64,000 bases of DNA from an uncultured Spartobacteria bacterium. GTDB lineage: Bacteria > Verrucomicrobiota > Verrucomicrobiia > Chthoniobacterales > Chthoniobacteraceae. A model generated the notes under the pieces. It saw nothing but the letters and a program-made list of their open reading frames with translations. It was not told where the DNA came from and ran no database searches. Below are positions 12,977-57,864 of this stretch, piece after piece. Each line of letters begins with the position of its first letter. The stretch's first letter is position 1. The stretch covers positions 1 to 64,000 of the forward strand of contig CAIRYQ010000030.1 of NCBI GenBank assembly GCA_903882875.1. Reading direction: 5' to 3'. The position numbers and the translations under genes were made by a program.

Positions 12977-13093
12977 GCCGGGATGGGCAGGATCAGGGAT
13001 CAGAAAAGGCCTCACGCACCGCTCATCCGCGCGACCCAAGTTCTCACGACATCGAACCCATGATACCCGGCTTTGGGCAGGCATGAGGGACGA

Positions 13094-13429
13094 TTTTCCC
13101 GCTGCCACGCAGCCTTTTCCCGACATAGGTTTGACTCTTCCTCGTACAGGGGAAGCTCTTCCCGGTACGGGCCAGGCTTTCCGAGACCTGGTTTTGCCTC
13201 TTCCCCATATGGTTTTGTCCTTTCCCTGTACAGGGAAGCCTCTTCCCTACCTAGCTCACGCTCAAACCACCCAGTTTTGCCGCTTCCCTGTACGGGGAAA
13301 ACATTTCCCCATATCGCTTTTCCCCTTCCCCGTACCTGCCAGCCCCTTCCATGTACGGGGAAATCTCTTCCCTGTACGTGGAAATGTTTTCCCTGTACAT
13401 GGAAGGCCTTTCCCCGTACGGAAAAAAGC
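13094..13429. repeat. 21-bp tandem array, 16 units in exact register
   Basis: Sixteen consecutive 21-bp units run without a single base of slippage. Eleven or so carry a TTCC-n-GTAC core or a close variant (for example TTCCCTGTACAGGGAA and TTCCCCGTACGGGGAA), which is itself a palindrome. Others keep only the TTCCCC start or an ATAT centre. The unit length is a multiple of three and stop codons are rare, so several frames stay open across the array and spell heptapeptide repeats such as FPVRGKH. I consider these frames non-coding. It lies between the barrel gene and the broken methyltransferase. A second, different 21-bp array is at 56048-56194. Confidence 0.9.
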
Positions 13430-13508
13430 TCCCAAAATCCTGAAAAGCTGGGTTTCGGCACACATCCGCCTTGCGATCTCCCATGCGCCTGCGGCAGCGT
13501 CCCCGCCC

Positions 13509-55261: not shown

Positions 55262-55978
55262 CTACGGGGCGCTCGGCACTGCAAGCGTCTTCCTCGTCCC
55301 GTCGGGCACTTCGATCATTACTTTGTATGGCTCGATCGCGATCACCTTGTACGTCGTGTCGTGCTTGGGTGGCAGGGTGAATGTATGATCGAGTTGCGTT
55401 GTGAAATCGGGTGTGGGCTGCCCTCCGGGTTGCACCCATTTGCAGTGGAAGATGGCGTAAGACTTCCCTGTGATCTTCCGTTGGCGAGTTAGCACGATCC
55501 TTTCGCCGGTTTCCTTGTTGATGACGGTCACCTCGGAGACATCCTTCTTTTTTCCGTCCGCACCGGTGACTTCCTTATACTCGAAGGAATCAACCTTGAA
55601 CTTTGTGCCCGGAAGATCCGCGCCGACCGGCAGGCAGATATTCGAGACAAGCCCGTTTGTCACCTTGCCGAACATGAGCATCGTATCTGAGGGTTGTTTC
55701 GCATCGCGCGGCACATAGAGACCGTCGAATTCGAGTGGAAACCGATAGGGAACCAAAACGACCTTCACCAGTTCGAGCGCATCGAGCCCTGAAGGAGCGG
55801 GCTCTTGCTTCCCGGAGAGCGCACGCATTTCCTTCCCTGTGGCATCGTCGCCTTGGGGCCATCGGCTTCTCGTTTGCCAACGAACGAAAACAACCACGCA
55901 AACCAACGCGACGACGCCCGCGACGATGCTCCACAGCAGTGCGGTCTTCCTCGGGGAACGGCGGTCGCTGGGAGGCAT
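55262..55978 (-). CDS. Amuc_1099-like pilus-system membrane protein
   Basis: The ATG at 55978 (MPPSDRRSPRKTAL) gives 238 residues. One TM helix is seen at about 14-32 (LLWSIVAGVVALVCVVVFV). The periplasmic part has SEVTVINKETGERIVLTRQRKITGKSYAIF, then THTFTLP-like and YKVIAIEPYKVMIEVPDG. The block 'NKETGE-x-(V/I)-x-L-(V/T)' followed by a Ser/Tyr loop is what I recall from the verrucomicrobial Amuc_1099 family, which is encoded with type IV pilus-like genes. No other pilus genes are in the window. A second 21-bp array lies between this gene and the sulfatase. Confidence 0.6.
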   Translation of the reverse strand: MPPSDRRSPRKTALLWSIVAGVVALVCVVVFVRWQTRSRWPQGDDATGKEMRALSGKQEPAPSGLDALELVKVVLVPYRFPLEFDGLYVPRDAKQPSDTMLMFGKVTNGLVSNICLPVGADLPGTKFKVDSFEYKEVTGADGKKKDVSEVTVINKETGERIVLTRQRKITGKSYAIFHCKWVQPGGQPTPDFTTQLDHTFTLPPKHDTTYKVIAIEPYKVMIEVPDGTRKTLAVPSAP

Positions 55979-56047: not shown

Positions 56048-56194
56048 GCATCGGGCGAGGAAAACTGGCCGTTTTCTGTGGAAAATTGGCGTTTATTAAT
56101 CCAAGCGGGATACTCGGTCACGGCAGACGAGTACTCAGTCACGGCAGACGAGTACTCGGATATGGCAGACGAGTACTCGGGCGTAGAGGAGTGG
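56048..56194. repeat. Second 21-bp tandem array
   Basis: Seven 21-bp units can be aligned. Four are strong: at 56111, 56132, 56153 and 56174, each starting TACTC and three containing GGCAGACGAG, so GAGTACTC palindromes span the joints. Three weaker units (56048, 56069, 56090) share a GGAAAA(C/T)TGG tail. The frame is open and spells heptapeptides such as TADEYSV; I take it as non-coding. Unit sequence is unrelated to the first array at 13094, but period and palindromic joints are the same. Confidence 0.8.
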
Positions 56195-56364: not shown

Positions 56365-57864
56365 ATGACTCCCTTCCCCTTCCTCCGCACCGTCCTCCTT
56401 TTCCTGCTCACCGCAAGCGCCGCATTTTCCGCGGACCCCGCAGCGTCTGCTGCGACGAACCCGCGCAAGCCGAACTTCATCATCATCCTCGCCGACGACC
56501 TCGGCTATGGCGACCTCGGGTGCTACGGGCATCCGAGCATCCGCACGCCGAACCTCGACCGCATGGCGGCGGAGGGCGTGCGCTTCACGGATTTCTACGT
56601 CGCGGCGGAAGTCTGCACGCCGAGCCGCGCGGCGCTGCTCACCGGGCGCTATCCGATCCGGAGCGGGATGGCGCACAACCAGTTCCGCGTGCTGCGGCGC
56701 GAGTCGGTCGGCCATTTGCCGGATGATGAAATCACCATCGCCTCGCTGCTGAAGAAGCAGGGCTATTGGACGGGCGCGGTGGGAAAATGGCATCTCGGCA
56801 ACTGGATGAACAATCCGGCGGGGCACCCGATGAAGCACGGCTTCGACTCCTACTTCGGCCTCCCGCACTCGAACGACATGAACCGCGTGGCCGGCGGGCC
56901 GAAGGGCGAGGACAACAGCCTGGACCCGGACCCGAAGTGGTGGCAGGCGCCGCTCTTCGACGGCGAGCAGCTCATCGAGCAGCCCACCGACCAGACACAG
57001 CTCACGCGGCGCTACACGGAGAAGGCGGTGGAGTTCATCAAGCGGCACGCGGGCGAGCCGTGCGATCCGTTCTTCCTCTACTTCGCGTCCACCTTCCCGC
57101 ACACGCCGCTCTTCGCGTCGGAGAAATTCAAGGACAAGACGCCGCGCGGACGCTACGGCGATGTCGTCGAGGAACTCGACTGGGCCGTGGGCCAGATCCT
57201 CGACACGCTGCGCAGCGAGGGGCTGGACAAGAACACGTTCGTCTTCTTCACGAGCGACAACGGCCCGTGGCTCATCCGCGGCCTCGCGGGCGGCAGCGCC
57301 GGGCTGCTGCGCGACGGCAAGGGCAGCACTTGGGAAGGCGGGATGCGCGAGCCGGGCATCGCATGGTGGCCGGGGAAAATCCCAGCCGGGAAAGTCTGCC
57401 ACGAAATCGCGACGACGATGGATCTGCTGCCGACCATCGCGCGCTTTGCCGGGACGGAACCGCCGCAGGATCGCGAAATGGACGGCGTGGACATAGGGCC
57501 GCTGCTCAAGAATCCGGAAATCAGGGAAGAAGCGGTTGAGTTTGATGAATCGAAAAAACCAAAGGCGGTGCTCCGCCCGGTCGTGGATCGCAAAGTCTTC
57601 TGCTACTACCGCGGCACGGAGCTGTTCGCCGCGCGGCTCGGGCCGTGGAAGGCGCACTTCATCACGCAGGCCGCCTACGGCCAGCCCAAGGCCGAACCGC
57701 ACGACCCGCCGCTGCTCTTCAATCTCGAAGCCGACCCCGGCGAATCGTTCGAGTGTGCCGCCGACCACCCCGACGTGATCGCGCAAATCAAGGCCGCCGT
57801 GGAAAAGCACCGCGCGACGGTGAAGCCGGTGAAGAACCAGCTCGTCGAGACGGTGGCGAAGTAG
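56365..57864 (+). CDS. Secreted arylsulfatase (type I formylglycine sulfatase)
   Basis: The ATG at 56365 ([23 protein letters not shown]) gives 499 residues with a signal peptide. [20 protein letters not shown] carries the metal-site Asp pair. [16 protein letters not shown] carries the formylglycine Cys-x-Pro-x-Arg motif, and [11 protein letters not shown] and [11 protein letters not shown] the other catalytic blocks. It would hydrolyse sulfate esters of polysaccharides after maturation by a formylglycine-generating enzyme. The only FGE-like domain in this window is the fused one at 42147. The PepSY gene follows 63 bp later. Confidence 0.94.

What the first reader, a model, noticed from the sequence alone, without database searches (positions are those of the whole stretch)
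56048..56194. Second 21-bp array with unrelated units but same period and palindromic joints
GAGTACTC palindromes span the joints of units spaced 21 bp, and older units upstream still fit the frame. Two unrelated sequences sharing the same odd period in one window suggests a general mechanism or a common constraint in this genome.
Basis: seen in the sequence. Interest (0 to 1): 0.5.

Follow-up and report, generated by a model that had tools for sequence, protein, structure and literature searches.

The report
Intergenic 21-bp satellites with varying sequence
[quoted passage not shown] such constant-length satellites have been described in other bacteria, but what they do is unknown.

Summary
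In detail: three GAGTACTC palindromes lie exactly 21 bp apart (56129, 56150, 56171), with a decayed fourth in frame and an older 21-bp pair upstream. In 43 stretches (777 kb), 18 of 24 strong arrays have period 21, 42 or 63. In intergenic DNA the repeat signal at lag 21 is 116 times the median lag; at lag 20 it is 1.4 times. Twenty-nine array segments fall into 16 sequence families, all at 21 bp, and as a group the units show two-fold (dyad) symmetry. The focal family occurs at three loci here and in none of the other 383 genomes of the class that were searched. Two other genera of the family have 21-bp arrays with other units. This fits the known, unexplained class of bacterial satellites with constant size (20-21 or 52 nt) and variable sequence (PMC8161180), so it is a new member. 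Dyad symmetry, in-phase family switching and a one-unit length difference are details seen here. Best reading: a platform for a dimeric protein every two helical turns; a mutational ruler is not excluded.

The parts
56105..56188 (.). Focal array: four 21-bp units joined at GAGTACTC palindromes (56129-56136, 56150-56157, 56171-56178); the first joint is decayed (GGATACTC, 56108-56115)
56059..56100 (.). Older pair of A/T-rich units GGAAAACTGGC / GGAAAATTGGC, 21 bp apart, with the near-palindrome AAAACTGGCCGTTTT at 56061-56075
   Evidence: read directly; no statistical test of its own
13077..13462 (.). Second 21-bp array of the window, units with TTCCC-GTAC-GGGAA-like dyads; TRF core 13346-13404
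   Evidence: dyad symmetry of 13346-13429 p = 0.0002
56365..57864 (+). Neighbouring gene to the right: sulfatase (PF00884), start about 170 bp from the array
55262..55978 (-). Neighbouring gene to the left, divergent, no Pfam match at E 0.01; the start at 55978 is my choice, about 70 bp from 56049

Best explanation
The array is one locus of a genome-wide set of intergenic satellites whose repeat length is fixed at 21 bp while the unit sequence differs from locus to locus; this places it in the published class of bacterial satellites with constant repeat size and variable sequence (I put this part at about 0.9). Most likely mechanism, inferred: each array is a platform on which a dimeric DNA-binding protein sits side by side, one dimer per two helical turns. 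It reads a short dyad-symmetric core plus the spacing rather than one fixed sequence. Arrays grow and shrink by whole units through slippage; other length changes are selected against because they turn the next site off the same face of the helix. Shown here: constant spacing, position mostly between genes, dyad symmetry as a group property, a one-unit length difference between two duplicate copies, and many unrelated families at one period. Inferred: the protein, its binding, the selection, and any effect on nucleoid or transcription.
For: Period. Sixteen sequence families among 29 own segments, all at 21 bp. Unit steps: 377 of 384 are 21, six are 22, one is 19, none is 20, over 43 segments of which 10 are from relatives. 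Dyad symmetry against column permutation: 12 of 25 own segments at p < 0.05, Fisher 9e-21; 3 of 10 segments from two other genera, Fisher 4e-5. 18 of 23 arrays do not overlap called genes. Duplicate arrays L034 and L224 are 88% identical with gaps that sum to 21 bases. Family switching in phase within single arrays. G-T and A-C mismatches across the dyads are equal, 237 and 231 in 26 segments, so no RNA wobble signature in sum. CGGA/TCCG occurs in 11 of 16 family representatives (p = 0.008 against shuffles, maximum over all 4-mers), like the short characteristic sequences reported for the class.
Against: No protein was identified and nothing shows binding. Several strong arrays have no dyad symmetry (L029 p = 0.62, L230 first segment 0.86, second 0.46, L232 0.21), the focal array reaches only 0.078, and 2 of 9 coding or low-identity control arrays also pass 0.05 (Fisher 0.04). 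Dyads are not kept at 21-bp spacing between dissimilar units: 1 of 41. Orientation of the flanking genes shows no promoter bias. Array finding by lag 21 favours constant spacing. In G014 the all-sequence spectrum peaks at lag 51, with 21 no higher than 24, and 0 of its 6 TRF arrays of period 21n is free of indels.
Confidence: 0.45

Rival explanations
1. Mutational ruler without function: a replication or repair process of this lineage makes tandem duplications of two helical turns, and self-complementary units are favoured because slipped strands fold into hairpins. The satellites are by-products.
For: Whole-unit length difference between duplicates; higher-order periods 42 and 63; no common neighbouring gene seen and no orientation bias; arrays without dyad symmetry.
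Against: Spacing stays 21 while units change by at least 423 substitutions in 31 segments; non-coding alignments with relatives have about one indel per ten substitutions (46 to 461). A ruler that only makes duplications would not stop later indels. Ascertainment by lag 21 weakens this.
Confidence: 0.33
2. RNA-level function: arrays are transcribed and act as tandem hairpins or small RNAs. Subirana and Messeguer discuss small RNAs for the class and report transcription of 52-nt satellites in Bacillus coagulans.
For: Dyad symmetry could mean hairpins; the published class is transcribed in one species.
Against: No G-U excess over A-C in sum (237 against 231); no Rfam match near gathering score at the focal array; no preferred orientation to genes.
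Confidence: 0.08
3. Ordinary slippage satellites without any constraint; the shared period is inherited from one ancestral array that spread and diverged.
For: Some families clearly spread: 10 segments in one family, 3 in the focal one; in-phase family switching within arrays.
Against: Sixteen families too different to align should have picked up period changes at the non-coding indel rate seen with relatives; none has period 19, 20, 22 or 23 as its main period.
Confidence: 0.05
4. Coding heptad repeats: 21 bp is seven codons.
For: 5 of 23 arrays overlap called genes (L024, L025, L028:19347, L058:16749, window:41217); published 21-nt families include one coding case.
Against: 18 of 23 arrays do not overlap called genes. 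L028:19347, L058:16749 and window:41217 lack dyad symmetry (p 0.91, 0.58, 0.28).
Confidence: 0.02
5. REP elements moved by RAYT (Y1) transposases.
For: Three Y1_Tnp genes in the genome, one about 0.9 kb from the array of L028.
Against: By reading, the palindromes beside the three genes are other sequences; arrays are contiguous with fixed spacing; no common GTAG or CGTC tag in the array units as read.
Confidence: 0.01

Closest known systems
Bacterial tandem repeats of constant size (20-21 or 52 nt) and variable sequence: Subirana and Messeguer 2021, PMC8161180 (part 1 of 5, passages, and sections 3.3 and 4.1 read); their 2020 paper, J Bacteriol 202:e00229-20, is not held and I know it only from its citation and by recall
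   Same: Mostly non-coding, one repeat length with several unrelated families in one genome, families private to the species, a short sequence common to many units, length of two helical turns (their remark).
   Different: Probably another phylum; length 21 in 377 of 384 steps; dyad symmetry as a group property, in-phase family switching and a one-unit difference between duplicates. 'Palindrom' and 'Verrucomicrob' do not occur in the main text of PMC8161180.
Heptamer direct repeats: TAACTGA of Beggiatoaceae, PMC4679880 (passages read), and cyanobacterial STRR (listing)
   Same: Many short intergenic tandem arrays in one genome.
   Different: Period 7 and, for TAACTGA, one fixed sequence; here 21 bp, many sequences, and no internal 7-bp repetition in the units (lag-7 z = 0.8). 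Short 7-bp arrays do occur in this genome and in G003/G004.
REP elements, PMC3733652 (passages read)
   Same: Intergenic palindromes of about 20 bp.
   Different: REPs carry GTAG or CGTC tags and belong to sequence families; the arrays are contiguous, evenly spaced and differ in sequence between loci.
Intergenic tandem repeats of freshwater Planctomycetota, PMC9426551 (passages read)
   Same: Intergenic tandem repeats, there linked with deletions in lake populations.
   Different: No repeat length in the passages that I saw; another phylum.

Membership tests
Constant-size, variable-sequence bacterial satellites (PMC8161180) | One repeat length of 20-21 (20-23) nt dominates the satellites of the genome | tested here: met
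   18 of 24 strong arrays at 21, 42 or 63; intergenic lag 21 at 116 times the median
Constant-size, variable-sequence bacterial satellites (PMC8161180) | Several families with unrelated sequence in one genome | tested here: met
   29 own segments form 16 families
Constant-size, variable-sequence bacterial satellites (PMC8161180) | Families specific to the species | tested here: met
   For the focal family only: exact pair pattern in 1 of 384 genomes of the class, the window's own. Other families were not searched this way; nine segments from G014/G016 matched no own family
Constant-size, variable-sequence bacterial satellites (PMC8161180) | Non-coding | tested here: met
   18 of 23 arrays have no overlap with genes called by a home-made codon model; 5 overlap. 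Not tested for arrays of G014/G016
   15 units at C26 and about 4 in the focal array, one decayed
Constant-size, variable-sequence bacterial satellites (PMC8161180) | A characteristic short sequence in most repeats of the species | tested here: inconclusive
   CGGA in 11 of 16 family representatives, p = 0.008; no 5-mer passes; in relatives the best 4-mer has p = 0.11
Constant-size, variable-sequence bacterial satellites (PMC8161180) | A protein polymerised on the array (their hypothesis) | not testable with these tools
   needs footprinting or pull-down
REP elements of RAYT transposases | GTAG or CGTC tag and similarity to palindromes flanking a Y1 transposase | tested here: not met
   Loci of three Y1 genes read; their palindromes differ from the arrays. 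By inspection, not by a statistical search
Heptamer repeats (STRR, TAACTGA) | 7-bp period | tested here: not met
   Period 21; no lag-7 similarity within units, z = 0.8 over 29 segments
CRISPR array | Constant repeats separated by unique spacers | tested here: not met
   Whole unit repeats; nothing like unique spacers in the arrays read

The most novel reading that the evidence does not exclude
The repeat length of this class of satellites is set by the DNA helix: a dimeric, filament-forming nucleoid protein reads two-fold symmetric DNA at exactly two-turn spacing with almost no base specificity. The genome can therefore rewrite the sequence of every array, family by family and in half-unit blocks, as long as symmetry and phase stay. 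The published 52-nt class would be the five-turn version of the same rule.
Probability: 0.2. Interest if true: 0.85.

Novelty: new member of a known kind. Interest (0 to 1): 0.5.

Why it matters
Satellites of constant length and variable sequence are a published puzzle without a mechanism. This genome is a dense example: 16 intergenic arrays in 40 unselected stretches of 695 kb would extrapolate to about 130 in the genome, perhaps too many because contig starts are over-represented and arrays sit at contig ends. It adds measurable clues: dyad symmetry as a group property, spacing of 21 with 22 rarely and 20 never seen, and in-phase replacement of one unit family by another. These point to a helix-phased site and make the question testable with array DNA of several unrelated families.

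Tried and rejected
Dyads kept at 21-bp spacing between dissimilar units: 1 of 41, no signal. Descent of the units from heptamers: no internal 7-bp similarity. RNA wobble: equal in sum; single arrays are skewed either way because one consensus mismatch repeats in every unit, so I make nothing of them. Promoter-like orientation: none. Common neighbour: of eight proteins scanned, five had no Pfam match, one is a sulfatase, one a membrane transporter and one a Type ISP restriction-modification protein that is not an array neighbour. Orthologous loci in relatives: alignments to G003 and G004 stop short of the array sites, so presence or absence at the same site could not be judged. Viral contigs: 18 stretches with one focal pair each, not followed up. 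Naming the organism: no 16S match in the assembly; best GltB hits include cyanobacteria and several Verrucomicrobiota MAGs, so Verrucomicrobiota is inferred, not shown. Rfam: only two matches far below gathering score at the focal region.

Rows left out of counts: one search tested 25 of 33 own segments; L036:461, L063, L224, L228, L233 and the second segments of L226, L232 and L236 were not given to it. In one search neighbouring segments of one array share scanned flanks, so some steps are counted twice. In one search the own set includes stretches fetched because they matched arrays. Rows for relatives are inflated by runs of N; one search repeats the scan with N masked.

Full report
What is there. 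The focal stretch holds four 21-bp units, joined at GAGTACTC palindromes at 56129, 56150 and 56171 and at a decayed, in-frame GGATACTC at 56108. GAGTACTC occurs nowhere else in the 64-kb window. Upstream, two A/T-rich units, GGAAAACTGGC and GGAAAATTGGC, are also 21 bp apart; their dyad centre misses the extrapolated frame by about 1.5 bp (read). The array lies between two divergent genes, one without a Pfam match and one sulfatase.

The same family elsewhere. In the genome (5.78 Mb, 129 contigs) the family recurs at C26:1167-1485, about 15 units, and at C80:16629-16774, more varied. About 1 kb of flank on each side of the three loci shows no similarity between loci at E 0.01. The exact pair pattern is in 1 of 384 genomes of the class, the window's own.

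Is 21 special? I took the first 20 kb, or the whole if shorter, of 40 contigs, plus the window and two stretches that hold the focal family: 43 stretches, 777,159 bases. TRF found 87 arrays; of the 24 with score 80 or more, 8 have period 21, 5 period 42 and 5 period 63. Without the window and the two chosen stretches it is 14 of 20 (rows); a few of these are probably coding. A six-unit scan at mean identity 0.55 gave 20 stretches at period 21 and 10 at 42, against 7 at all other periods from 12 to 45. In called-intergenic DNA of 42 stretches the rate of near-matches at lags 21, 42, 63 and 84 is 116, 130, 102 and 105 times the median lag; lag 20 is 1.4, lag 22 is 3.3, lag 43 is 8.7, lag 7 is 14 and lag 14 is 7.4. 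In 72 stretches of other named bacteria (1.38 Mb) 6 of 37 strong arrays are multiples of 21 and none is 21.

Sequence families. Twenty-nine own segments cluster into families of 10, 3, 2 and 2 and twelve singletons at 16 of 21 identity; the null reaches 14 at its 99.9th percentile. The largest family shares a CCGGAYGG-like half and differs in the other half, by my reading. Within single arrays one family gives way to another in phase (L057, L230, L232). The arrays of L034 and L224 are duplicates, 88% identical over 641 columns with gaps that sum to 21 bases.

Symmetry. Against column permutation, 12 of 25 own segments have whole-unit dyad symmetry at p below 0.05 (Fisher 9e-21), 3 of 10 segments from two other genera (Fisher 4e-5) and 2 of 9 coding or low-identity controls (Fisher 0.04). 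An earlier test with wider boundaries gave a combined p of 2e-16 over 22 loci. The focal array alone gives 0.078, and several strong arrays show none. Dyads are not kept at 21-bp spacing between dissimilar units (1 of 41). So symmetry is a group tendency, not a rule.

Spacing. Of 384 unit steps in 43 segments (33 own, 10 from relatives) 377 are 21, six are 22, one is 19 and none is 20. At least 423 substitutions are needed for the variation among 298 units of 31 segments; non-coding alignments with G003 and G004 have 46 indels per 461 substitutions in 2,654 aligned bases. Because arrays were found by lag 21, this is suggestive rather than proof. With an indel-tolerant TRF setting, 23 of 40 own arrays of period 21n have no indel, against 0 of 18 in other named bacteria; G016 has 3 of 5 and G014 0 of 6.

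Context. Eighteen of 23 arrays have no overlap with called genes and five do. Orientation around 12 arrays (6 tandem, 4 divergent, 2 convergent) matches that of 170 intergenic gaps of 150 bp or more (100, 46, 24). AAACGGC and AAAACGG are found in 11 and 10 of 45 array flanks, about 1.0 and 0.9 expected, the top of a list without correction. Three Y1 transposase genes exist; by reading, the palindromes beside them are unlike the arrays.

Relatives. G014 and G016, two other genera of the same family, have 21-bp arrays with units of their own: L175, L270 and two in L272; L182, L277, L280 and two in L286 (199 kb and 165 kb examined). I did not call genes there. Lag 21 is the top of the spectrum in G016 but not in G014, where lag 51 is highest and lags 21 and 24 are equal. 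In 252 kb of the close relatives G003 and G004 the only two strong lag-21 stretches are runs of 7-bp units. Elsewhere in 702 kb of relatives, L175 and L182 were the only long 21-bp arrays; L166 also passed 0.56 and looks like a coding repeat.

What is known. Subirana and Messeguer describe bacterial tandem repeats with constant size, 20-21 or 52 nt, and variable sequence. Families are species-specific, 20-23 nt repeats occur in individual species of many groups, the length is noted to equal two helical turns, and a protein that polymerises on the DNA is one of their suggestions (PMC8161180; part 1 of 5, passages and two sections read). Their 2019 survey (PMC6749651; parts 1-3 of 5 read) finds few satellites in most prokaryotes. 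Their 2020 paper is not held. This case meets the description, so I file it as a new member. In the paper library, searches that joined 21-bp, tandem or intergenic repeats with Verrucomicrobia, Planctomycetes, palindromes or helical turns listed no report of it; subscription journals are mostly not held.

Mechanism. Constant spacing with free sequence, two-fold symmetry and whole-unit length change fit a dimeric protein bound every two turns, but nothing here shows a protein. A mutational ruler with hairpin-assisted slippage explains most of the facts too; it accounts less well for spacing kept through many substitutions. I give 0.45 and 0.33.

Noticed in passing
G004 and G003 stretches, e.g. 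L258:2250-2386, L262:5393-5482, L256:14429-14506, L244:7768-7881; own genome L027:4851-4943: Tandem 7-bp arrays that often come as inverted pairs with a 20-110 nt centre and fold into long hairpins. Not the same as the 21-bp arrays; origin and function unknown.
   Followed up: partly
window:13737-13870: REP-like palindromes (CCCAGCGCTTCAGCGCTGGG and GTCCCGTCAGGGAC types) inside what looks like a broken DNA methyltransferase gene; the same palindromes lie beside a Y1 transposase on C92.
   Followed up: no
L029:1, L046:1, L226:1, L233:1, L280:1, ends of L063, L228 and L230: Arrays sit at contig ends, so short-read assembly probably breaks at them and true arrays may be longer.
   Followed up: no
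flanks of arrays, e.g. L034:12105-12125 and L025:4525-4538: A palindrome around AAAACGGC ... GTTTT recurs at array edges, once as a 21-bp unit in frame.
   Followed up: partly
window:33322-37827: The GltB-like protein is 75-77% identical to two cyanobacterial sequences, above its best Verrucomicrobiota hits at 73-74%; perhaps horizontal transfer.
   Followed up: no
L111:16013-16280 (Bacillus sp. BA3): A 21-bp array, CTCACGAGTAAAAGCGCCGAA, turned up in the control set and may belong to the published Bacillus class; dyad symmetry p = 0.125.
   Followed up: partly
window:33221-33287: An 18-bp repeat (AGAAACAGGGACTACCGC, 3.7 copies) just before the conserved part of the GltB gene.
   Followed up: no
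window:48684-52340: Type ISP restriction-modification protein (PF18135, PF02384) about 4 kb from the focal array.
   Followed up: no
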